64,000 bases of DNA, taken from positions 45,521-109,520 of the IMG/VR virus record IMGVR_UViG_3300005617_000004; one strand, given 5' to 3'. This document shows, piece after piece, positions 474 to 59,665 of the stretch. The notes under the pieces are model-generated. The model saw nothing but the letters and a program-made list of their open reading frames with translations. It searched no databases and was not told the origin of the DNA. How positions within the stretch are numbered: the first letter of the stretch is position 1; each line of letters starts with the position of its first letter. A program made the position numbers and the translations under genes. The DNA is from a virus.

Positions 474-974
474 TTACTTCCGGGCCCGGCGCGCAGCGCG
501 GGCGCTGATCTTGCGGACGACGCGGCGGCTCACCTTGCGACGGCCCTTGCGGACCTTGATGCGGCCGACGCGGAACCACTTGCCCTTGCGCTTGAACACG
601 CTGCCGACGCGCTTGCCCTTCGGGGGCTTCGGCAGCTTGCGGCGACGGACGGTGTGACGGGCCTTGCGGACGCGACGACCTTTGCGGCGAGCCATGGAAC
701 GCTTCTTTCCACGGCGCTTGCCGTGCTTGCGAGGGTTGGACTTGAGCAGCCGACGCAGCGCGACGCGCTGGGCGGCGGTGAGATGGCCGGGGTTGTGGTG
801 CCAGCGCCAGAACGCGAGCCGCGAGGCGGCGGCGCCCGCAGAAACCCGGCGGCCACGACGCGCGACGCGCTTGCCGCGACGCTTCGGATTACGGCGGCGC
901 ACGATGCGCACCGTGGCGATCTCGTTCTCGTTCGGGCGGGCGTTGCGACGATAACGGCGGTAGTGGCGTCTCAT
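474..974 (-). CDS. protamine-like Arg/Lys-rich DNA-condensing protein
   Basis: The 166-residue product is about 43% Arg plus Lys by direct count and has very few acidic residues. Basic clusters such as RRRNPKRRGKRVARRGRR run through the whole length, broken only by a short helical segment (residues about 48-78, with LAFWRWHH and AAQRVALRRLL). Such composition is typical of proteins that neutralise and compact DNA, for example viral core proteins and protamines. It lies next to candidate virion membrane proteins, which fits a packaged core protein. Function is inferred from composition; a ribosome-like or cell-penetrating role cannot be excluded. Confidence 0.6.
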   Translation of the reverse strand: MRRHYRRYRRNARPNENEIATVRIVRRRNPKRRGKRVARRGRRVSAGAAASRLAFWRWHHNPGHLTAAQRVALRRLLKSNPRKHGKRRGKKRSMARRKGRRVRKARHTVRRRKLPKPPKGKRVGSVFKRKGKWFRVGRIKVRKGRRKVSRRVVRKISARAARRARK

Positions 975-1023: not shown

Positions 1024-1485
1024 TCACCGGTAACGTTCTTCGAGCGCGTTCTTGTTCTGGGCCTTCAGCAAGTAGACGGTGCCGACCGTCAACACGCCGA
1101 TGGCGGTCATGGCCAGCAGGCGCTTGTTGTCGCGCAACGTTGCCGGCAGTGCCTGCATCGTGCCGGAGAACTTGTCGCGCATCTTCGGGTTGGACGACAT
1201 CACCAGCGCAGAACCGGCAACGCCCACCACCGCACCGATCAGGGCCAGCGACTTGCCGGTGGCGTCCTGCGTCGCCTGTGCGGCGGTCAGCTTCATGGTG
1301 CCGGGCTGCTCGTTGGTGAAGATGGCACGCGCGGCCGGGTTGGCGCGCAGCAGCATCAGGCCGCCCAAGATGCCGACGGTCGCGCCGCCCAGCGACAGGA
1401 CTCGGCCCCAGGCTTCACGCTTGGCGTCGTCGGCGGTCAGCTTCAGGGTGACCGGCTTGGTGAACTCGGGAGCCAGCAGTCCCAC
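1024..1485 (-). CDS. three-helix membrane protein with internal duplication
   Basis: The 153-residue product has three hydrophobic segments (about residues 30-47, 79-96 and 122-140). The first two sit in a tandem repeat: KLTADDAKREAWGRVLSLGG and KLTAAQATQDATGKSLALIG are each followed by a GxxVGxxG helix, an NP turn and a basic end. The third helix has diverged and ends with a charged tail (ALEERYR). It belongs to the run of small membrane genes next to the core-protein gene, so a virion membrane protein is likely. No named family recognised. Confidence 0.6.
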   Translation of the reverse strand: MGLLAPEFTKPVTLKLTADDAKREAWGRVLSLGGATVGILGGLMLLRANPAARAIFTNEQPGTMKLTAAQATQDATGKSLALIGAVVGVAGSALVMSSNPKMRDKFSGTMQALPATLRDNKRLLAMTAIGVLTVGTVYLLKAQNKNALEERYR

Positions 1486-2089: not shown

Positions 2090-3241
2090 TCAACGGAAGA
2101 ACAGGAACGCGCCGATGGCGGCCGCGGTGCCGAGCAGGCCGGCAGCGCCGGTCGACTCGGCGGGCTTGCCCTGCGCCGTGTTGATGACGCCGGTAACCTG
2201 ATCGCTGGAGGTGAACGCCGCGTCGACCATCTTGTCGCGGGCCTTGAGCTCCTGTGCGCGCTGGGCGAACTGCGGATCGCCGCGCAGCCCCTTGGCGATG
2301 TTGACCCGCACCGCCTCGTGGTACTCGGGGGTCGCGGTCATCGCCAGGGTTTTGTCGCGGAACTCATCCATGTCGCGCTTGGCGGCGGCGACCAGGGACC
2401 CGGTCTTGTTGCGGATCTCGTGCACCGCCTGCTGGCCGCTGAACGTCCGGCCGATGGCGTCGATGTCTTCGGCGAACATGTGGTACGGGTTCTGCAGCTT
2501 CTTCTCGAACATCAGGGCGACGCGCTTGCTGTTGCGGTCCCAGGCGTCGTTCCACTTCTTGGCCTTGGCTTCGCCCTTCTTGTCGCCGACCAGCCGCGCA
2601 CCGGCAGCGCCGGTCTTCAGGACCGCGTCACCGACGACTTGCACCGACTTGGTCTGCGCCTTCGCGACGGTGCCGGTCAGGAACTTCTTGATACCCAGGG
2701 CGCCGAGCCCTTCGAGCAGCTGGCCGGACGCCGCCAGCTGCTCGGCAGCCGCGTACTCCTGCTCCCCCACCTGATTCTTGGCCGCTTGCACGGTGGCCTG
2801 CGTGCGGCGCCCGTAGCCTTGGATCTCGTCCTTGGCGGCCTCGATCATCTTGTGGATCTGCTTCTTGGCGATCGACCCACCGACCAGGGTGCCGATGGCA
2901 ATCAAGGCCGCCACGACCCAGCCGACGATGGGCACCACGCTGGCGGCGGTCGCTGCGGTCATGCCGGCCGCCATGGCGGCTCCGGTGGCGACCGCAACGC
3001 CCGCAGCGGTGTCGAACAGCACACCCGCCGCGACGCTGACCGCCATCTGGGCCACCGCCTGTTCGGTTGCGGCCTCGATCATGCGCTTCTTGAGCAACGC
3101 CGCTTGGTCGTTCATGCTGGTCAGGGCCAGCTGCGGTTCCTGCGCGACCTCATCGGCACCCAAGAACTCCGGCTCGAGATACCGCCGGTAGCGCGGCAGC
3201 ATCAGCGAACGGCCCGCGGGGTCGACGAGGTACTGCGGCAT
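2090..3241 (-). CDS. large membrane protein with hydrophobic hairpin and C-terminal anchor
   Basis: The 383-residue product is the largest protein of the left membrane cluster. Residues about 64-126 form a long Ala/Gly-rich hydrophobic region (AVSVAAGVLFDTAAGVAVAT, then VVPIVGWVVAALIAIGTLVG) that can make two or three membrane passes. A long, mainly helical charged region follows (about 130-350), and a last helix GLLGTAAAIGAFLFFR ends the protein. Its ATG shares one base with the stop of the upstream gene (TAATG). The architecture resembles membrane-remodelling or virion membrane proteins; no family is recognised. Confidence 0.55.
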   Translation of the reverse strand: MPQYLVDPAGRSLMLPRYRRYLEPEFLGADEVAQEPQLALTSMNDQAALLKKRMIEAATEQAVAQMAVSVAAGVLFDTAAGVAVATGAAMAAGMTAATAASVVPIVGWVVAALIAIGTLVGGSIAKKQIHKMIEAAKDEIQGYGRRTQATVQAAKNQVGEQEYAAAEQLAASGQLLEGLGALGIKKFLTGTVAKAQTKSVQVVGDAVLKTGAAGARLVGDKKGEAKAKKWNDAWDRNSKRVALMFEKKLQNPYHMFAEDIDAIGRTFSGQQAVHEIRNKTGSLVAAAKRDMDEFRDKTLAMTATPEYHEAVRVNIAKGLRGDPQFAQRAQELKARDKMVDAAFTSSDQVTGVINTAQGKPAESTGAAGLLGTAAAIGAFLFFR

Positions 3242-3681
3242 TACTTGCGCCGCAGGAACAGGTACAGGGCGCCGAGGGCGACCGCGCCGCCGAGCACGAG
3301 CGCCGGGGTCGGGATGGTGGTGCCGCCGACCTGAAGGCCGCCACCAGCGTCCTGCGCGGTGATCTGAGCTTGTGCGGCGGCAGCGGCGGCCTTGACCGCG
3401 GCGGCTTCCGCACGCTTCGCGTCCTCTTCCTTGGTGCGGGCGCGCTTCTCGTCCATCTGCTGCTGACGCAGGGTGTAGGCGGTCGACCCGACGGTGGTCA
3501 GTGCTTGGATCAGGGGCCCGATCGACTCGACCCAGCCGAGGTCTTCACCGGGCAGGTTCGACGGGGCTTCAATGTTGCCGCGTCGGATGATCAGGCCCGT
3601 GTTGGTGGTCGGCCACACGCTGTCGCCGCCATGACGTGACAGGGACCGCGTCATGAACGCCGGGGTATTGCGATAGCCCAT
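3241..3681 (-). CDS. tail-anchored membrane protein with coiled coil
   Basis: The 146-residue product has an N-terminal soluble part, a charged Ala-rich coiled coil (about 70-102, including EKRARTKEEDAKRAEAAAVK), and a C-terminal helix PALVLGGAVALGALYLFL ending RRK. It overlaps the downstream gene by one base and so is probably translated with it. Same tail-anchor design as its neighbours; function unknown. Confidence 0.6.
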   Translation of the reverse strand: MGYRNTPAFMTRSLSRHGGDSVWPTTNTGLIIRRGNIEAPSNLPGEDLGWVESIGPLIQALTTVGSTAYTLRQQQMDEKRARTKEEDAKRAEAAAVKAAAAAAQAQITAQDAGGGLQVGGTTIPTPALVLGGAVALGALYLFLRRK

Positions 3682-24046: not shown

Positions 24047-24613
24047 ATGGCTGACAACACCGCTGCCTTCATGGCCCTGGACCGCGAGTCACAGGGTGCC
24101 ATCGCGCCCTACCAGTCTGGCGTCGACATGACCGGTGCGCGCTCCTCGATGCTGGCTCTGCTGAGCAAGATCAACGTGATGTTCCCCTGGGCGCCTCCAG
24201 GCCTGTCGTCGATCGGCTCGCGGGTGTTCGACCTCGGCGCCTTCCCCCGTCTGCGCGCGTACCTGCCCGGTGGCGGAGCGCGGCCTGCGTGGCTGGCCGA
24301 CGAAGCCAAGTACCAGCAGTGGCGCAAGATGATCGAGCAGCTGTACCGACCGATCGACACGGCGTTCCTGAAGCAGAACTCGGCCCTCACCGCGGCGGAG
24401 ACCCAGGCGGCGGCCAACAACGTAGCCTTCTGGGACGACGTCTACAAGACGACCGACACCATCAACATGGCGAGCCCGCTGCGCATCGGCATGAACCTGC
24501 GCGAGTCGTACGAGAGCAGCCCGAAGACCTTCACCGCCGTCGTGGCTGCCGGAGCGCTGGCAGTGACCGGCATCTTCGCCTACTTCATGTTCCGCAAGCC
24601 GCGCCGCAAGTAA
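24047..24613 (+). CDS. tail-anchored membrane protein, 188 aa
   Basis: Soluble N-terminal 155 residues, then one helix FTAVVAAGALAVTGIFAYFM and the basic tail FRKPRRK. First of the right-hand membrane cluster and of the same design as the left cluster (1489-3681). Probable virion membrane protein; family unknown. Confidence 0.6.
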   Translation: MADNTAAFMALDRESQGAIAPYQSGVDMTGARSSMLALLSKINVMFPWAPPGLSSIGSRVFDLGAFPRLRAYLPGGGARPAWLADEAKYQQWRKMIEQLYRPIDTAFLKQNSALTAAETQAAANNVAFWDDVYKTTDTINMASPLRIGMNLRESYESSPKTFTAVVAAGALAVTGIFAYFMFRKPRRK

Positions 24614-26388: not shown

Positions 26389-26730
26389 ATGGACCAGCCC
26401 GACCCGCACGACCAGCTGCTGCTCACCGAGCGGCCGACCACGATCGTGACCCAGCACACCGCGGCCCACGACTCCATGCCGTCCCCCTACGGCTCGCAGG
26501 AGGATGAGGAAGCCCTGTTCTCGCAGGTCGGCGATGACGCCGGCTTCGCCCAGAACGCGGCCGCCAGCATCAACACCCGCAGCCAGACCGAAGACCGCGT
26601 CCCCGCGGTCATGCGCGAAGGCCCGGGACCCGGCGCGATCTCGATCATCCCGGCCGGCATGGACGGCAAGACGGTCGCCATCCTGGCGGGCCTCGGTCTC
26701 GGCATCGCGTACCTGCTGACCCGGAAGTAA
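26389..26730 (+). CDS. tail-anchored membrane protein, 113 aa
   Basis: Polar acidic N-terminal 90 residues, then helix KTVAILAGLGLGIAYLL and the tail TRK. Same anchor design as its neighbours. ATG 26389 is the first in-frame ATG. Confidence 0.6.
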   Translation: MDQPDPHDQLLLTERPTTIVTQHTAAHDSMPSPYGSQEDEEALFSQVGDDAGFAQNAAASINTRSQTEDRVPAVMREGPGPGAISIIPAGMDGKTVAILAGLGLGIAYLLTRK

Positions 26731-26734
26731 TTCC

Positions 26735-26977
26735 GTGGACAACTACCTGAGCGGCACGTACCTGGGTGACCTGTCGGACGACATGGGGGATGATCTCAGC
26801 GCCGACAACGCCACCACCGCGTTGTCGCCCGCGCGCGGCGAGCGCCCGCCCGCCGAGTACGTGACGCTGCCCGGCGGCATCATGATGGAGAAGAAGGCCT
26901 TCTATCTCGCCGTCGCCGTCCTGGCCGCCATCGCCATCTACCTCGCAACCCGCAAGAAGAAATCCTCGAGCGAATGA
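26735..26977 (+). CDS. tail-anchored membrane protein, 80 aa
   Basis: GTG 26735. Acidic N-terminal region, then helix AFYLAVAVLAAIAIYLA and a long basic tail TRKKKSSSE. Part of the right-hand membrane cluster; overlaps the next gene by 4 bases. Confidence 0.6.
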   Translation: MDNYLSGTYLGDLSDDMGDDLSADNATTALSPARGERPPAEYVTLPGGIMMEKKAFYLAVAVLAAIAIYLATRKKKSSSE

Positions 26978-27337: not shown

Positions 27338-27718
27338 ATGCAGCTCCGCCGCCAGTCGCTCACCAACGACGCCCACCCTTCGATCGACCCCGTCACCAGC
27401 TCCGGCCGCGGCACCGCGCACCGGGTCGACGGCAACGGCCTCGAAGCCGACCGCCGCAACGTGATCTCGGTCGCCAAGGGCCGCAAGATCGACGGCGCGC
27501 CGATCACCGAGGAGAAGACCGACCTCGTCACCGTGGGCCGCGCCCAGGTGCTGGCCCGCAGCGGCAACGACGCCGGGCAGCACGAGGAAGAGTGGGAAGG
27601 CGATGACGGTAACTTCGACGAGCTCGCGGCCGCCGACGTGTCCTCGACGGTCAAGACCACCCACGTGCTGACGCTGGTCGGCGTGGCGGCACTCCTGTGG
27701 TGGGCGTGGAAGAAGTAA
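27338..27718 (+). CDS. tail-anchored membrane protein, 126 aa
   Basis: The soluble part is charged, with a basic N-terminus and an acidic stretch (EEEWEGDDGNFDE). The C-terminal helix HVLTLVGVAALLWWAW ends KK. Its stop overlaps the next start (TAATG). Confidence 0.6.
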   Translation: MQLRRQSLTNDAHPSIDPVTSSGRGTAHRVDGNGLEADRRNVISVAKGRKIDGAPITEEKTDLVTVGRAQVLARSGNDAGQHEEEWEGDDGNFDELAAADVSSTVKTTHVLTLVGVAALLWWAWKK

Positions 27719-53214: not shown

Positions 53215-53450
53215 GCGCGGTATCCCGGGTTGATGTTCGCCCGCTTCTCAGGTGGCCATGACGTGACCTCGCGCGACGCGGCGTCGAGGCGACGGTATAG
53301 CCAGTTGTCCGGGCGAGTCGGGTGCCGGAGAACGCGGCCGGTGCCGCTACAAGGGCAGCCGGAGAGCACTTGGCCAATGACATAGCCGCGGCCTTTGCAG
53401 GTCGGGCAGGTGGTGAGTTCGCACCACCATTCGAGGGTAGGGCGGCTCAT
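53211..53450 (-). CDS. DnaJ-type zinc-finger protein, 79 aa
   Basis: CPTCKGRGYVIG and CPCSGTGRV form a DnaJ-like zinc motif; the C-terminus is basic. Coupled to both neighbours. Function unknown. Confidence 0.6.
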   Translation of the reverse strand: MSRPTLEWWCELTTCPTCKGRGYVIGQVLSGCPCSGTGRVLRHPTRPDNWLYRRLDAASREVTSWPPEKRANINPGYRA

Positions 53451-53962
53451 TTGCGGAGTGCCTCTCGGAGACGCTGCGCGGTCTTAGTAGTCACATGGAA
53501 CTCCGCACAGCCGCCCGGGTCGCTCGTCTGATACCGCGTCACCTGATGGACGGGTTTCTCCGGCGACACCACCTCTCGGCCCATCAGCCGATACCGCTCT
53601 TCGGTTATCAGCTTGAGCGCCCCGACGAAGCCGATGCGCTCGATCTTCCGCCGTTTTCCAGGGCGTACAGCGTTTGACGCCCAACCCGCGCCTCCGGCAA
53701 TCGCCTGCACGATGTCAAGCGTGTCGCCGTCCTTGAAGACCGTCTTCATGCCGTCGAGGAACCGGATGTCTTCTTCGCCGACGAACAGGTTGAACCAGCG
53801 GCGCGGCTTGGCGCCGTCGAGCAGCTTGTCCTTGATGCCGGGGTAGTGGCGGTCGAGGTAGGCGATGGCGTCTTCGACGGAGTCGGCGTAGAGGTGGAGG
53901 ACGGGCTGGTCGGCGACGAGAGGTCGCAGGGTAGAGGGGATGGAGACGGTGATGTAGTTCAT
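53447..53962 (-). CDS. MoaD/ThiS-like beta-grasp protein with C-terminal extension
   Basis: Residues 1-91 follow the MoaD/ThiS pattern closely: ITVSIPSTLRPLVADQP, HYPGIKDKLLDG, RRWFNLFVGEEDIRFLDGM, KDGDTLDIVQAIAGG. The last ends in Gly90-Gly91, where sulfur-carrier and ubiquitin-like proteins are activated. Here 80 further residues follow, so the GG end would be exposed only after cleavage. No E1/ThiF or JAB protease gene is visible in the window. Possible roles: conjugation, sulfur transfer, or simply a structural use of the fold. Confidence 0.75.
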   Translation of the reverse strand: MNYITVSIPSTLRPLVADQPVLHLYADSVEDAIAYLDRHYPGIKDKLLDGAKPRRWFNLFVGEEDIRFLDGMKTVFKDGDTLDIVQAIAGGAGWASNAVRPGKRRKIERIGFVGALKLITEERYRLMGREVVSPEKPVHQVTRYQTSDPGGCAEFHVTTKTAQRLREALRK

Positions 53963-54630
53963 CGCGGCTCCTCCGGGAAGAATCGCTTGAATACCCCGTC
54001 CGGATTATCGACCAAGTCCTGCGTGAACATCCAAGTATGGAGCCACGTACCGTCCATCAACGGCAAATGTGACAAGAAAGGCAGTTCGTTGCGATTACCG
54101 TTTTTATCGCGGAACGAGAACCCGTCGCGCTTTATCATAGCCTCCAGCTTCAGCACGTCGATGTCGTAGAGCGCGATCTTGTGAGCGGCACAAAACCGCC
54201 GTTTTTGCGGGGTTATTGGCGTCGTAGCGGTAAGCTCAAACACCGCTGTCAATCCAAGATTACTCTCGCAGGCGACGTCAAATATGAACATGGGCTTGAG
54301 GTTGACCTCCAACGCGGCCTCGGGAGTTGGATAGCACCACGACTCATTTTCGTGCAACCAGTTCTGGGCGCCGAACTTTATCCCTAGCTGCGTCCACGAA
54401 AACGTACGACCCTTCGCCTTATGTGGACCCGGGTAGACATACTCAACCACAACGTGCCCGTTGGCGTGGTCGCTGCGAATGGGGCCATAGCCGGTCCAGA
54501 GCCGTTTGATAACACTCTGCACGACCAACTTGGCGTCGAAGTGCGCGTCGGACTCGCGGTTTCTGAACGCGGTCTTCTGGCGGTACTCCGCCGCAGACAT
54601 TCCATAGGGGTAGTCGCCATCATCGTTCAT
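53959..54630 (-). CDS. hypothetical protein, 223 aa
   Basis: ATG 54630. Mixed alpha/beta product with HFDAKLVVQSVIKRLW near the N-terminus and LGLTAVFELTATTPITPQKR with CAAHKIALYDIDVL later. The latter 'vfE-x-K/T-T...P...K..y....i...e' order is reminiscent of competence-CoiA-like nucleases but key residues are unclear. Lies directly downstream of the polymerase fusion. Confidence 0.5.
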   Translation of the reverse strand: MNDDGDYPYGMSAAEYRQKTAFRNRESDAHFDAKLVVQSVIKRLWTGYGPIRSDHANGHVVVEYVYPGPHKAKGRTFSWTQLGIKFGAQNWLHENESWCYPTPEAALEVNLKPMFIFDVACESNLGLTAVFELTATTPITPQKRRFCAAHKIALYDIDVLKLEAMIKRDGFSFRDKNGNRNELPFLSHLPLMDGTWLHTWMFTQDLVDNPDGVFKRFFPEEPR

Positions 54631-57600
54631 TTTCCATACCTCCTGGACATGATTTCTGGTTTGCTGAACACAGGCATTCCTGGCGCCCACGACGGTGCGA
54701 TTCGCATCTCGCGCTCCAGCCAGTCACGCCAAGCGATACCGTGCTGCTCGGGAACTTCCAGCACGACTTCGTCGTGCACGTGGAAAGCGATCGGCGCTCC
54801 GGCGCGATCTACCCGCAGCATGACGTCGGCGAGCAGGTCGCGGCAGAAGCCCTGTACCGCGTTCTCGTAAATCTTACCGCCGTAGGTGCGACGCTGCAGA
54901 ACCTTGCCGTTGACCGCGTTGTCATAGACGATCACCTTTCGCCAGTCGGCATAGGGGTCGCGCTCCATGCGCGCGTTCCAATAGGTGATGGGTCGCCCGC
55001 TAGGCAGAATCATCTCCACACGATCCGGGTGCTTGACGAAAGTCAGCTTCCCGCATTGGCGCACCGTCGTGCGGTTGTTCTCCAACACGAGCTTGAACAT
55101 CTCTTCACAGGCCCACCAAGACTTCTGCACCTTCTGGTACTTCGACCGGTATCCGTCGATGATGGTCTGAGGGTCGATCCCAAGCCCTACAAGGTCAACG
55201 CCGAGCGGGCCGGCCATCCGAAGCACAGCGTTTGCGCCGCCGCCAAAACCCGCGCTAAGGATTCCAATCTTACCCCCTCCGCGCTCGCGCTTGGTAACGG
55301 TCAGGGGGTTCTTGCCGAAGATGGTGCCGGCCAGAATCTGGTAGGTGTCAGGAACGTTCGGGTCTTTGCCTTCGGGGTGAGCTTCATCGGCAGCATCCTT
55401 CCGGCGATAGTCGATGAGACCATCCTCGTCGTCGGCCAGCCACAGTACGCCGCGCGCTTCTACCGAAGCGAAGTCACCAACCACAAACACGTTGCCCGGC
55501 GCCGGCACAATGATGCCGCGAATCAGGGACCCGAGCAGCTCGTAAGGCGGCTGGTCCTTGCACAGCTCAACAAACCGGGCCCGGTCCTTCTCTTCAATGG
55601 CGGCCGCAGCCGCGGCGAGGTCAAACTCCTCGTTGGGCCTCTTCATGTTCTGAACCTGGATCTGATACCCGCTCCACCGACCTGTTGACGCACCACAGTA
55701 CCGCAGCTGCCCCTTAGCCCGTCCGTCGGCCGACACGCATTTCAACGCTTTCTCGACCTTGGCCAACGCGGCTCGCGACACGGTCAGCCGGCACTTGATG
55801 GCCTCTACGACTTCGTGTGAGATGGGGCCGACCTGCTCGGGGTCTGTCTTCCGTTCCTCCTGCTCCTCGTACATCTCCACGACGGCCCGCAGCGAAGTCA
55901 CGGTCGTATCTTCGAGTTGCGCGTGCGGGGGTAGGTTCTGGTTCAGCTGCTCGCGCAAGAACTCTACGCGGGTGAGGTCGGCCCGGGTGATCGCGCCGCC
56001 CGTTACCTTCTCAATCTGCGCGCCGGCCAGGGCCTTGAACTCATCGTCGAAGTCCCGCAGCGTCGCGGCGAACTCTTTATCGATGCAGATACCCCAGTAG
56101 TTGATCTTGTGGTGCAGGTCGCACACCTCCTGCTCCCACGCCGGGCTGGCGTCGAGGCCGAACTTCTGCGCGATCCAGTAGCTGATGTCGGTGTCGCGGA
56201 AGTTGTAGCTCAAGATGCTCTGAATCATGAAGTCTGTGAGCTCCGGCAGCTCGCCCGTCTTGGGGTCGGGGCCCCATATCTGGCTGATGAACCGCTTGCC
56301 GGCCACGTCCTTGCCTAGGCCGAACAGCGTCAACCCAGCCTCGTCGGCGCCGGCGGCCAGCCCCTTGGACAAGGTGCGGTCCATCGTGTCGCGCCACGCG
56401 ATCGGCTCCGGCAGCTTCAAGGTGCGGGTCCAGATGGCGCGCTCGAACCCGACGTTATGTGCTACGATCACACACCCAGACGGGTCGGTCACCATGTCGT
56501 GCAAGAAGTCAATGCCGTGCTCATACTCGACGCCCTCCGGCATCGTCAGGTTGTACTTGCTCGTGGTCCAGTAGATCCGACGTCCCTCTACGATGATGGC
56601 GGCGCACATGACCTTGGTGGAGGCATCCTCCGCGTACACGTAGCTGCCATGCTGGGGTAGGTTGCAAGCTGACTGGGTCTCGAAGTCCAAGTACACAATC
56701 AGCGGGTCGGTGTACTCGTCGGGGTCCAGCACGAGGGGCTCCTGGTCGCCGAGTGCGGTGAGTTCCTGAAGCGCTTCGACAGCGACTACGGCCGCCCCCT
56801 CCGCGGAGGTTTCGACGGGCGGCCGTGGCTTCGGGGGCCACGTGTTGAACAGCTCCGCGTTGACGCTGCGGGTGCGTGACCGTGCGCGGCCTCCCTCCGC
56901 CATCCGAACGTAGGAGCGTGCGCCCCAGTTCCGGATCTCGAACTCGACGGTCTTTATACCGTCCTTGAACGCGTACATTTTGGGCAGGTGCAACTGGAAC
57001 GGGTCCAACACGTGCTTCAAGCTCTCCGCGGCGTGCAGCCTGTCTTCGTCGCGCTGGCCACTGCTGCCCTTACCCAGGGACTCGACCAGCAGCTGGCACG
57101 TAGCGCCGACGGTGCCGGCCTTGTTCCAGTCGATGAAGCGGGCACCGCGGCCGACGCGCTTCTGGGTCGTCGCATCCTCCTCGGGGCTGCCGGCGATACG
57201 CTCGATCAGCTCGACCACCAAATCGCGGATGGCTTCGTGGGTATCGGTTCTGTCGACCTCCTCCTCAAGCCTCGGGATCTTCAGCATCTGCATCTTGACG
57301 GCGAACGACGTCTCGCAGTCGGCCGGGAAATACTCGTCTACGACCCAGGAGTGCAGGGCCTGCGCTGCCTGGGTGAGCTCCGGCGACGACATCCACCACT
57401 TCTCGACCATATGGCCGATCTTCTCCCAGCTGGTGGTCAACCGGGTCTCTAGGCGCAGCAGGTGCACGCGCCGACCAAACTGCTGATCATGCGAGAAGAA
57501 CGCAGGGATACGCCAGTCGGTGAATATCACCGCATTATTGAACGGGGGGCTCTCCGCGCCCTTGTAGTTCTTATAGTGGGTGAACGCGGCGCGGTTCAGC

Positions 57601-59525
57601 CGGGTAGCGAATGTGTGCAAATACTGGTAGTCGGCGGGCTTCTTGGCGAAGTCGTCGAACACCAAGAGCCGCGACAGCCGCATCGCGTCGCCGACCGACT
57701 GGTTCAGCCGGTCCTCCTGGATGCCGGACATGTCCTGAAACAGCTCGCCATACATCTCGGTCACCACGCGGATGGTGGTGGTCTTGGCGGCTTCGGTCGG
57801 GCCCGTGGCCCACAGCATCGGAGGCGGCCCTTCGCCGGACTCGGCGCAGCCCATAGCGATGATCAGAGCCTTGAGGTACAAAACGTTGATTCCGGGAAAA
57901 TGTGCTTCAATCGCCGCCTCTGCGCTGGCCAGCGGCATGCGGTGTTTAGGGGCCACGTAGGTAACCCGGTCTTGCGTGGTACGTACTCTCGGCTTACACC
58001 GGATGATGCCGTTGTTGAACGTATCACGATTGTGGTGTAGAAATATGGGCTCGAACAAGTACGGCTGGATCGGGATCCAGCCGGGCAGTCGGCCATTGTT
58101 GGTGTGCGCCGTCACATACGCCTGCATCGGCTTGAGCGCGTCTTCCTCTTTATCGTAGTGCTGGCATGATGGAAGGATGGCCACGTCCTTGCTGGCCAGC
58201 CGCTGAGCCTCCAACAGCGTGTCCTTGTGCAGCCACTGGCTCTCACCGCGGACGAAAAAGAAGGGGTGGAACGCGGCCTTGATACGCTTGACGCTATCCT
58301 TTCCGGCGTCGATGGACTCCTTATGCGTGGCCTTCAGCTGCGCCGAGTACACGTGCTCCCGTAGTGAGGCGGGTAGGTTAGGAAACAGCTCCGCGAACAG
58401 GTAGCCGACATGCTCCGCATGAACAATGTTCTCAAACGCGAGGCGAATCGGCGCCAACGCGTAGCTGTTTTCGAGCGCCAACCCGTGCTTGCGCCGCAGG
58501 CTGCCCCACGTCATAAGGCCGCGTCCGAGGCGCCCATGGCACGAATGGCAATACAAGCCCTGCTTGCTGTCGACGAACACCGGGGTGGCACTGGTCGACA
58601 CGTGGTCCGGGTCTATGGAGCAGTATGAATGGGGGAGCCGCTCTCCGCCTTTGAGCCCGAGCAGTTCCATGATCTCGGCAACCTCTTCCTCGGTCGCCTC
58701 GGCTTTGGAGAACCGCTCCAGCACCTTGAAGTTCTCATCGGGGAGGCTCTCAACTACACGTCCGCAGCGCTGACCTTTCTGGGTAGAGCCCGGGTGCCGT
58801 GTACGGTTGATCACTTCGACCGTGCCGCGAGCCCGCAGAACCGGAATCAAAGTGAGAAGCTGTGCAGCAGCGGCAGCGGCGAGTTCCTGCGCGGTGTAGC
58901 GGTCGTTCGGCGTGGAGGTGTAGATCGCCTTGATGCCGCCGCCCTGCGTGCGCCACCAGCACACAGGTGCGGGTGCGAGATTGCGGCCGAGGTCGTCGAG
59001 GCTCTCGACCGTCATCCGCTCCGGCGCTTCGTGGTCGTGGAAGTCTACGTCCAAGCAGGCCAGGAACGGCAGCGTGTCGGCATCCCATTCCAGTAGTGTG
59101 TCGGGTGCTTCGATCTGCTTGCGCAAGATTGCCGTCATGGCGGCAGCGGTGTTGATCTCTTCGTAGACCAGCGCCTCTTTTTTCGTCTGCCGAATAGTCC
59201 GCTGGCTCAGCTGATACGGTGGTGTGGGCTTCCAGGTTTTTTCGGCTGGCGCAGCTGTTTCCGCCTTCTTCTGCTCGGCGATCTCGGCCAGCCAGCCTTT
59301 GTACAGACGGGTCAAGTGTAGAAACTCGCCGGGCCCTATATTGATCTCGCGCTCGAGCTGGCGCGCGGCGGCGCCGCCGCCCATGTTGAACGCGGAGAAG
59401 AAACGCTCCTGCCCTTGGGAGTCTTGGTAGTCGATCCGGACGAAATCAGGAAAGCCTTTGTCTGCGGGGCTGAGTTGCAGCGTCCGACCTCCGGTGAGGT
59501 CGACAATCAAAGGCTCGATCAGCAT
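54627..59525 (-). CDS. primase-helicase-exonuclease-DNA polymerase A fusion
   Basis: This is a 1632-residue one-chain replisome. Residues 140-260 look like an archaeo-eukaryotic primase (CLDVDFHD with Asp159/Asp161; RHPGSTQK 243-250). A Cys/His cluster follows (302-330). Residues 540-700 hold a helicase-type ATPase: GPTEAAKTT (575-583, Ala in place of the usual Gly) and LLVFDDF (620-626). Residues 940-1120 are the 3'-5' exonuclease (DFE 947-949, AHNVGFE, YNFRD). Residues 1270-1632 are family A polymerase: motif A DFASVEAR (1351), motif B R-x3-K (1415-1419) with Leu1423, motif C HDE (1584-1586). It replicates the viral DNA. Confidence 0.85.
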   Translation of the reverse strand: MLIEPLIVDLTGGRTLQLSPADKGFPDFVRIDYQDSQGQERFFSAFNMGGGAAARQLEREINIGPGEFLHLTRLYKGWLAEIAEQKKAETAAPAEKTWKPTPPYQLSQRTIRQTKKEALVYEEINTAAAMTAILRKQIEAPDTLLEWDADTLPFLACLDVDFHDHEAPERMTVESLDDLGRNLAPAPVCWWRTQGGGIKAIYTSTPNDRYTAQELAAAAAAQLLTLIPVLRARGTVEVINRTRHPGSTQKGQRCGRVVESLPDENFKVLERFSKAEATEEEVAEIMELLGLKGGERLPHSYCSIDPDHVSTSATPVFVDSKQGLYCHSCHGRLGRGLMTWGSLRRKHGLALENSYALAPIRLAFENIVHAEHVGYLFAELFPNLPASLREHVYSAQLKATHKESIDAGKDSVKRIKAAFHPFFFVRGESQWLHKDTLLEAQRLASKDVAILPSCQHYDKEEDALKPMQAYVTAHTNNGRLPGWIPIQPYLFEPIFLHHNRDTFNNGIIRCKPRVRTTQDRVTYVAPKHRMPLASAEAAIEAHFPGINVLYLKALIIAMGCAESGEGPPPMLWATGPTEAAKTTTIRVVTEMYGELFQDMSGIQEDRLNQSVGDAMRLSRLLVFDDFAKKPADYQYLHTFATRLNRAAFTHYKNYKGAESPPFNNAVIFTDWRIPAFFSHDQQFGRRVHLLRLETRLTTSWEKIGHMVEKWWMSSPELTQAAQALHSWVVDEYFPADCETSFAVKMQMLKIPRLEEEVDRTDTHEAIRDLVVELIERIAGSPEEDATTQKRVGRGARFIDWNKAGTVGATCQLLVESLGKGSSGQRDEDRLHAAESLKHVLDPFQLHLPKMYAFKDGIKTVEFEIRNWGARSYVRMAEGGRARSRTRSVNAELFNTWPPKPRPPVETSAEGAAVVAVEALQELTALGDQEPLVLDPDEYTDPLIVYLDFETQSACNLPQHGSYVYAEDASTKVMCAAIIVEGRRIYWTTSKYNLTMPEGVEYEHGIDFLHDMVTDPSGCVIVAHNVGFERAIWTRTLKLPEPIAWRDTMDRTLSKGLAAGADEAGLTLFGLGKDVAGKRFISQIWGPDPKTGELPELTDFMIQSILSYNFRDTDISYWIAQKFGLDASPAWEQEVCDLHHKINYWGICIDKEFAATLRDFDDEFKALAGAQIEKVTGGAITRADLTRVEFLREQLNQNLPPHAQLEDTTVTSLRAVVEMYEEQEERKTDPEQVGPISHEVVEAIKCRLTVSRAALAKVEKALKCVSADGRAKGQLRYCGASTGRWSGYQIQVQNMKRPNEEFDLAAAAAAIEEKDRARFVELCKDQPPYELLGSLIRGIIVPAPGNVFVVGDFASVEARGVLWLADDEDGLIDYRRKDAADEAHPEGKDPNVPDTYQILAGTIFGKNPLTVTKRERGGGKIGILSAGFGGGANAVLRMAGPLGVDLVGLGIDPQTIIDGYRSKYQKVQKSWWACEEMFKLVLENNRTTVRQCGKLTFVKHPDRVEMILPSGRPITYWNARMERDPYADWRKVIVYDNAVNGKVLQRRTYGGKIYENAVQGFCRDLLADVMLRVDRAGAPIAFHVHDEVVLEVPEQHGIAWRDWLEREMRIAPSWAPGMPVFSKPEIMSRRYGK

Positions 59526-59548
59526 GGAGTCTTCCCTGAGAGGCGACT

Positions 59549-59635
59549 CGGCTTCCGAAGCACCACCCCACCAGGGTCGGTTGCCGCCGACCTACCCCGG
59601 GAAGGGAGGGCGGTGTGGCAGTGCTTCGGAAGCCG
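59549..59635. repeat. long inverted repeat in the leader of the polymerase gene
   Basis: CGGCTTCCGAAGCAC (59549-59563) pairs perfectly with GTGCTTCGGAAGCCG (59621-59635). Each arm is itself a palindrome (GCTTC-C/G-GAAGC), and a smaller hairpin (GGTCGG/CCGACC) lies inside. It could be a cruciform, a protein-binding pair or a structured leader. Confidence 0.6.
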
Positions 59636-59665
59636 AATGGCTGGTAGGCAGTACCAGCGTGGTCG

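What the first reader, a model, noticed from the sequence alone, without database searches (positions are those of the whole stretch)
54627..59525. One polypeptide carrying primase, helicase, proofreading and polymerase domains
Seen: 1632 uninterrupted residues hold primase-like Asp159/Asp161, a Cys/His cluster, a Walker-type ATPase, a complete 3'-5' exonuclease and a family A polymerase. Known: in T7-like phages primase-helicase and polymerase are separate proteins that must assemble. Inference: this virus has fused the whole elongation machine, which fixes stoichiometry and could couple leading- and lagging-strand synthesis within one chain. I do not know of a well-described phage enzyme with this full set.
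Basis: partly seen in the sequence, partly recalled or inferred. Interest (0 to 1): 0.82.

Follow-up and report, generated by a model that had tools for sequence, protein, structure and literature searches.

The report
Phage single-chain primase-helicase-proofreading DNA polymerase
One very long virus gene encodes a proofreading DNA polymerase joined to a probable primer-making enzyme and a probable DNA-unwinding motor; this combination is known elsewhere but not, to my knowledge, with these particular parts in a phage, and the gene's messenger starts with a conserved folded RNA element that matches no known RNA family.

Summary
The ORF is real: minus strand, 54627-59525, 1632 codons. Three further IMG/VR contigs carry it full length (80, 58 and 55% identity). 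The C-terminal 690 residues are a secure DnaQ-like exonuclease plus family A polymerase. Residues 1-900 match no Pfam or PDB profile, but motif conservation and profile-profile alignment with AEP-PriCT2-DUF5906 primase-helicases of other phages support an SF3-like ATPase (0 of 200 shuffles reach the score) and, more weakly, an archaeo-eukaryotic primase (5 of 200). Those phages carry the two halves as separate genes. No other DnaB, TOPRIM, Prim-Pol or DUF5906 gene was found in the record. What differs here is AEP + SF3-like ATPase + PolA in one phage chain. Two unreported features: (1) a ~136-nt structured leader RNA, covarying in all four members (13 doubly changed pairs, 0/500 shuffles), no Rfam match; (2) a GTG with a Shine-Dalgarno-like sequence at the linker/polymerase junction in all four, which could also yield a stand-alone polymerase. 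Verdict: new variant of a known kind.

The parts
54627..59525 (-). Fused replicase ORF, 1632 aa (P0001)
   Evidence: full-length homologues L002, L003, L008
59523..59658 (-). Conserved structured leader RNA directly upstream of, and reaching, the start codon: small hairpin, 22-bp stem, inner junction
   Evidence: Fold z = -5.3; same fold in three relatives; 13 doubly changed pairs, 0/500 shuffles; one strong sense-strand hit per record; no Rfam match
59175..59525 (-). Residues 1-117, N-terminal extension of unknown function
   Evidence: Partly confident strands and helices in a poor AF2 model; least conserved folded region
58701..59174 (-). Residues ~118-275, predicted AEP primase domain
   Evidence: Register match to the Prim-Pol DxD and GGxH motifs of phage primases; 5/200 shuffles reach the score
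59043..59051 (-). AEP motif I, D159-x-D161
   Evidence: Invariant in 4 members; fits hhhDhD/E (definition in PMC5862659)
58476..58700 (-). Residues ~276-350, predicted Zn-binding domain (C302, H308, C326, C329)
   Evidence: Invariant in 4 members; only confident part of AF2 model 2, pLDDT about 70-90; profile match to AEP-linked Zn region not significant (33/150 shuffles)
57891..58475 (-). Residues 351-545, linking region before the ATPase, no identifiable family
   Evidence: Conserved 50-76%; no profile match
57321..57890 (-). Residues ~546-735, predicted SF3-like (DUF5906-like) ATPase/helicase core
   Evidence: Profile-profile P 2.5e-4, and 9.3e-5 at domain level, 0/200 shuffles
57780..57803 (-). 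Walker A, 575-GPTEAAKT-582 (GETGSAKT in L008)
57651..57665 (-). Walker B, 621-LVFDD-625
56835..57320 (-). Residues 736-897, C-terminal part of the helicase half, unknown
   Evidence: Conserved, no family found
56712..56834 (-). Residues 898-938, Pro/Ala/Glu-rich interdomain linker
   Evidence: 24-48% identity, much below its neighbours
56730..56743 (-). Candidate internal start: AGGAG-6 nt-GTG at V932
   Evidence: Present at the linker in all four members; synonymous-shuffle joint P = 0.023
56121..56711 (-). Residues ~939-1135, DnaQ-like 3'-5' exonuclease
   Evidence: phrog_17 E = 5e-68 over 940-1632; motifs Exo I-III aligned with six stand-alone phage PolAs
54630..56120 (-). Residues ~1136-1632, family A DNA polymerase
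   Evidence: PF00476 41.4 bits against cut-off 34.3; motifs A, B, C
53959..54630 (-). Downstream gene, 223 aa, start overlaps the replicase stop by 4 nt; a homologue lies downstream of the replicase in L002
   Evidence: no Pfam family

Best explanation
The gene encodes a single-chain replicase of an uncultivated virus of bacteria. Order along the chain: short N-terminal extension, AEP-type primase, Zn-binding module, SF3-like ATPase, flexible linker, DnaQ-like 3'-5' exonuclease, family A DNA polymerase. Most likely mode of action (inferred): the ATPase part oligomerises on single-stranded DNA and unwinds the fork, the AEP part lays primers, and the tethered PolA extends and proofreads them, possibly in trans between subunits as shown for GP55. 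It probably arose by joining an AEP-helicase gene to a complete phage PolA gene, genes that sit side by side in other phages. A structured leader RNA probably controls its translation. Shown here: the ORF, its conservation, exonuclease and polymerase family membership, the covarying leader structure. Supported but not proven: SF3-like ATPase, then AEP. Inferred: activities, oligomeric state, regulation.
For: Full-length conservation in four members with purifying selection in every domain. Exonuclease/polymerase: PF00476 above cut-off, phrog_17 E = 5e-68, all catalytic motifs aligned with stand-alone phage PolAs; the fused PolAs form one clade (support 1.0). ATPase: hhalign P = 2.5e-4 and 9.3e-5 against 14 AEP-PriCT2-DUF5906-type proteins, 0/200 column shuffles. 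Primase: two independent phage primases align motifs I and II in the same register (Fanboy-group profile, Ab18); P = 0.015-0.034; 5/200 shuffles; AEP motifs hhhDhD, [K/H] at motif II, hE and a conserved Arg are present (definitions in PMC5862659). The matches fall in the AEP-then-ATPase order. Partner genes in other phages: PolA next to a primase-helicase-type gene in VP2 and ct8d5349, and in NatCom_34063 as annotated. No DnaB_C, Toprim_3, Prim-Pol or DUF5906 match elsewhere in the record.
Against: No Pfam or PDB sequence profile and no significant PHROG matches residues 1-905. Both AF2 models were poor (pLDDT 36 and 45) and the PDB fold search gave nothing, so neither the primase nor the helicase fold is confirmed. 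The motif II His is Lys in three of four members; the Walker A Gly before Lys is Ala; the SF3 motif C Asn appears to be Asp. The primase score alone is reached by 2.5% of shuffles. No SSB was found in the records searched, so the replisome is not complete in one chain.
Confidence: 0.72

Rival explanations
1. Polymerase plus initiator: the N-terminal half is an origin-recognising, ATP-using initiator or loader derived from an AEP-SF3 protein whose primase site no longer works; priming is done by the host or by the polymerase.
For: Degenerate Walker A and Lys instead of His in motif II; primase match statistically weak.
Against: D159, D161, E237 and R243 are invariant across members down to 55% identity; the AEP region is under purifying selection (dN/dS 0.15); DR0530-like AEPs carry Arg or Lys in motif II (PMC5862659).
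Confidence: 0.17
2. Two-product gene: the ORF yields the full-length chain and, by internal initiation at V932, a free exonuclease-polymerase of about 701 aa, so the two strands could be served by tethered and free polymerase.
For: A GTG with an AGGAG-type sequence 6-8 nt upstream lies in the linker of all four members; joint P 0.023 under synonymous shuffling; in three of the four genes SD-start sites overall are fewer than the shuffled mean. The product would be the size of stand-alone phage PolAs (645-757 aa).
Against: Found after the fact; the linker is Glu-rich, which favours GAGGAG; P is modest; the four genes are related, so not independent. Compatible with the best explanation rather than exclusive of it.
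Confidence: 0.3
3. N-terminal half unrelated to primase and helicase (for example a nucleotide-modifying or structural module) fused to PolA.
For: No family profile hit and no fold match.
Against: Helicase-core score above all 200 shuffles, matches in the domain order of AEP-SF3 proteins and in motif register; no other primase or replicative helicase recognised in the record.
Confidence: 0.1

Closest known systems
GP55 four-in-one replicase, lactococcal phage 1706 (PMC12205980)
   Same: One phage polypeptide with AEP primase, SF3 helicase, 3'-5' exonuclease and polymerase; activities shown there; dimer; primase and polymerase can act in trans.
   Different: GP55 is 1317 aa, order helicase-AEP-alpha-helical domain-PolB (phi29-like). 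Here 1632 aa, order AEP-Zn-ATPase-exo-PolA, family A polymerase.
PfPrex, apicoplast replication enzyme of Plasmodium (PMC7341739)
   Same: Single polypeptide with primase, helicase, proofreading exonuclease and family A polymerase.
   Different: Nuclear-encoded eukaryotic protein, split after import. Its primase-helicase is, from my own knowledge, of the T7 gp4/Twinkle kind (TOPRIM + DnaB-like), not AEP + SF3.
AEP-PriCT2-DUF5906 primase-helicases of phages with stand-alone PolA (Brevundimonas phage Fanboy, Pseudomonas phages PaMx28 and PA_LZ02)
   Same: AEP then SF3-type ATPase in one protein, in phages whose PolA is among the nearest known to this one (28-30% identity).
   Different: PolA is a separate gene; their AEP and ATPase match Pfam clearly, the present ones do not; they have PriCT-2, which was not detected here.
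NrS-1 PrimPol (PMC7102993, PMC8718748)
   Same: Phage AEP followed by a helicase-like ring ATPase.
   Different: The AEP itself is the polymerase; no PolA or exonuclease.
T7 gp4 + gp5
   Same: Family A polymerase with exonuclease working with a primase-helicase (own knowledge).
   Different: Separate proteins; TOPRIM primase and DnaB-like helicase, neither found here.

Membership tests
Family A DNA polymerase (PF00476) | Profile match above the curated cut-off | tested here: met
   41.4 against 34.3 bits, residues 1197-1609
Family A DNA polymerase (PF00476) | Motifs A, B and C with catalytic acidic residues | tested here: met
   GDFASVEAR, RGGGK, HDE aligned with six phage PolAs
DnaQ-like 3'-5' exonuclease | Exo I DxE, Exo II Nx3(D/E), Exo III Yx3D | tested here: met
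   D947/E949, N1024/E1028, Y1107/D1111; stand-alone phage PolAs also have Glu in Exo II
Archaeo-eukaryotic primase superfamily | Motif I hhhDhD/E | tested here: met
   ACLDVD; both Asp invariant; aligned with Prim-Pol motif I
Archaeo-eukaryotic primase superfamily | Motif II sxH | tested here: not met
   His only in L003; Lys in window, L002, L008. Some AEP families vary here (PMC5862659), so not excluding
Archaeo-eukaryotic primase superfamily | Motif III hD/E | tested here: inconclusive
   E237 and R243 invariant in a plausible place, but not covered by the profile alignment
Archaeo-eukaryotic primase superfamily | Match to a known AEP profile (PF09250 and others) | tested here: not met
   No Pfam hit; profile-profile P 0.015-0.034 only
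Archaeo-eukaryotic primase superfamily | AEP fold | tested here: inconclusive
   AF2 pLDDT 45, no PDB fold match
SF3 helicase / DUF5906 ATPase | Walker A and Walker B | tested here: inconclusive
   K581, T582, D624, D625 invariant; Gly before Lys is Ala
SF3 helicase / DUF5906 ATPase | Motif C ending in Asn | tested here: not met
   VIFTD / VILTD, Asp at that place
SF3 helicase / DUF5906 ATPase | Homology to the family | tested here: met
   hhalign P 9.3e-5, 0/200 shuffles; direct PF19263 search negative
GP55-type four-in-one replicase | PolB domain C-terminal to helicase and AEP | tested here: not met
   Polymerase is family A; AEP precedes the ATPase
PfPrex / T7-like primase-helicase fusion | TOPRIM primase and DnaB-like helicase | tested here: not met
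   No PF13362 or PF03796 match in the record

The most novel reading that the evidence does not exclude
A so far undescribed class of phage replicase (AEP + SF3-like ATPase + exonuclease + PolA in one chain) whose gene makes two nested products, the full chain and a free polymerase from an internal GTG, and whose translation is controlled through a new structured leader RNA, perhaps bound by the replicase itself in the manner of T4 gp43.
Probability: 0.2. Interest if true: 0.82.

Novelty: new variant of a known kind. Interest (0 to 1): 0.6.

Why it matters
With GP55 (PolB) and PfPrex (PolA in an organelle), a phage AEP-SF3-PolA fusion would be a third combination of parts for a single-chain replicase, which suggests repeated origin of such fusions and offers a compact enzyme for primer-free DNA amplification. 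The leader RNA and the candidate internal start make it testable how a virus adjusts the dose of fused and free polymerase.

Tried and rejected
AF2 of residues 1-905 (3 sequences, pLDDT 36) and of 98-350 (4 sequences, pLDDT 45), and the PDB fold search, were uninformative. Seven viral-contig scans and two genome scans with different pieces found only the same three relatives plus one copy of L008's phage (100% identical over the primase region) in a MAG contig, so the family stayed too small for deep alignment. tblastn of the N-terminal half against phages and plasmids gave nothing even at E = 1, and at E = 10 for the L008 version against phages. HMMER with my own profiles against about 1000 ORFs gave only weak matches, though VP2 and Ab18, both AEP-helicase proteins, came near the top. 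The leader as a DNA cruciform or origin was considered; the model scores the sense strand far higher (131 against 24 bits) and a U-G pair is kept in all four, so RNA is favoured. The long phrog_17 profile (1445 positions) suggested known long PolAs; the stand-alone PolAs I opened were 645-757 aa. One search used a wrong family (PF03772) and carries no weight.

Full report
WHAT IS THERE. The open frame lies on the minus strand, 54627-59525, 1632 aa, starting with ATG. The window is part of a 109,520-base IMG/VR virus record. Three other IMG/VR contigs encode the protein full length: L002 (80% identity), L003 (58%) and L008 (55%, 96.8-kb contig). Against L002, dN/dS is 0.10-0.26 in every domain and 0.42 in the linker; amino-acid identity in the linker falls to 24-48% while both halves stay at 38-88%. 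The fusion is therefore an old, selected feature of this small lineage, not an assembly or frame artefact.

C-TERMINAL HALF. Pfam PF00476 matches residues 1197-1609 above its cut-off, and phrog_17, a phage DNA polymerase family, matches 940-1632 at E = 5e-68. In an alignment with six stand-alone phage PolAs all exonuclease motifs (D947/E949, N1024/E1028, Y1107/D1111) and polymerase motifs A, B and C are in register, and the four fused PolAs form one clade with support 1.0 on a long branch. The known phage matches listed are below 30% identity and cover this half only.

N-TERMINAL HALF. Residues 1-905 match no Pfam family at E = 10, no PDB sequence, and only chance-level PHROGs. tblastn against 50,697 phages and 72,556 plasmids found nothing. 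I therefore looked at the phages with the nearest PolA. They carry a separate protein with Prim-Pol (PF09250), PriCT-2 and DUF5906 domains. A 14-member alignment of such proteins was compared with my 4-member profile by hhalign. The ATPase core (residues 574-675) matches the DUF5906 region with P = 2.5e-4 (9.3e-5 at domain level), above all 200 column shuffles. Residues 153-209 match the Prim-Pol region containing catalytic motifs I and II, P = 0.015-0.034, reached by 5 of 200 shuffles. HMMER alignment to a second group (phage Ab18) gives the same register: NPAPTIIIDSGGGFQAFW against APAPVCWWRTQGGGIKAIY. P-values are for single comparisons chosen with knowledge of the expected domains. The cysteine/histidine cluster (C302, H308, C326, C329) lies where AEPs often have a Zn-binding domain (PMC5862659) and is the only confidently folded part of the second AF2 model, but its profile match is not significant (33/150).

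DEPARTURES FROM THE FAMILIES. AEP motif II His is Lys in three members and His in L003; published AEP families vary at this position, and DR0530-like ones carry Arg or Lys (PMC5862659). Walker A has Ala before the catalytic Lys in all four and Glu in place of the inner Gly in three (L008 is GETGSAKT). The SF3 motif C Asn appears to be Asp. Enzyme activity of both modules is therefore prediction.

CONTEXT. In other phages the equivalent genes are neighbours: VP2 PolA overlaps its primase gene, and in ct8d5349 and NatCom_34063 PolA is followed by a VirE- or primase-annotated gene; the order there is PolA first, the reverse of the fusion. In the present record there is no match to DnaB_C, Toprim_3, Prim-Pol or DUF5906 elsewhere and no SSB in three of the records. 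An SNF2-type helicase and further helicases are encoded.

The 135 nt directly upstream fold at -76.9 kcal/mol, z = -5.3. All four members have the same architecture at the same place: a long stem capped by a junction, with a 7-bp hairpin before it in three of them. On the alignment, 92.5% of cells pair, 13 of 42 pairs have changes on both sides, no shuffle of 500 reaches any of the five measures, and sliding the partners collapses them. The controls do not remove relatedness entirely, and the structure was derived from these same sequences. A covariance model finds one strong sense-strand copy per record, always before the replicase. Rfam has no match. Autogenous translational control, as known for T4 gp43 (own knowledge), is the simplest guess for its function.

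CANDIDATE INTERNAL START. At the linker/exonuclease junction all four genes have a GTG preceded by an AGGAG-type sequence at 6-8 nt (V932 in the window). Under synonymous codon shuffling all four keep such a site in the linker in 2.3% of trials; in three of the four genes SD-start sites are fewer than the shuffled mean. The product would be about 701 aa, like stand-alone phage PolAs (645-757 aa). This is suggestive only.

COMPARISON WITH THE KNOWN. GP55 of lactococcal phage 1706 is a demonstrated four-in-one replicase with SF3 helicase, AEP and PolB, a dimer, with over 1000 homologues (PMC12205980). PfPrex is one polypeptide with polymerase, primase and helicase activities that is split in the apicoplast (PMC7341739). 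I found no description of an AEP-SF3-exonuclease-PolA chain in the papers searched, which cover open-licence papers only. Verdict: new variant of a known kind.

Noticed in passing
window 59523-59658 (-): Conserved, covarying structured RNA in the leader of the replicase gene, one copy per record in four viruses, no Rfam match.
   Followed up: yes
window 56730-56743 (-): SD-like AGGAG plus GTG at the linker/exonuclease junction, present at the same place in all four fused members; possible internal start for a free polymerase.
   Followed up: partly
G000 whole record; window 1-34000: No terminase match (PF03237, phrog_2) in the record and no head or tail PHROG among 45 genes of window 1-34 kb: virion type unknown, possibly not a tailed phage.
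   Followed up: partly
window 1024-1485, 1678-2025, 3241-3681 (-); 24047-24613, 26389-26730, 26735-26977, 27338-27718 (+); L046:9160-11724 (-): A set of proteins each ending in one hydrophobic helix and a Lys/Arg-rich tail, including an 855-aa protein whose start looks transglutaminase-like (by eye); reminiscent of membrane-anchored virion proteins.
   Followed up: partly
window 474-974 (-): 166-aa extremely Arg/Lys-rich protein, protamine-like, possibly a DNA-condensing core protein.
   Followed up: no
window 53447-53962 (-): ThiS/MoaD-like (ubiquitin-fold) protein two genes downstream of the replicase, with a GG followed by an extension (PF02597, E = 4e-7).
   Followed up: no
L040 (PLEW01000003.1): A 29-kb contig binned in a Planctomycetota MAG from a bog carries a stretch 100% identical (primase region) to the L008 virus: a weak host hint or a binning error.
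   Followed up: no
L027:4437-8093, L028:4176-8045, L029:4470-8078: Large (1200-1290 aa) proteins annotated hypothetical in Caulobacter, Ruegeria and Brevundimonas phages match the AEP/Zn part of the Lacusarx primase and carry an ATPase-like region with a degraded P-loop (KPTPGTG, no Lys): probably unrecognised primase-helicases.
   Followed up: partly
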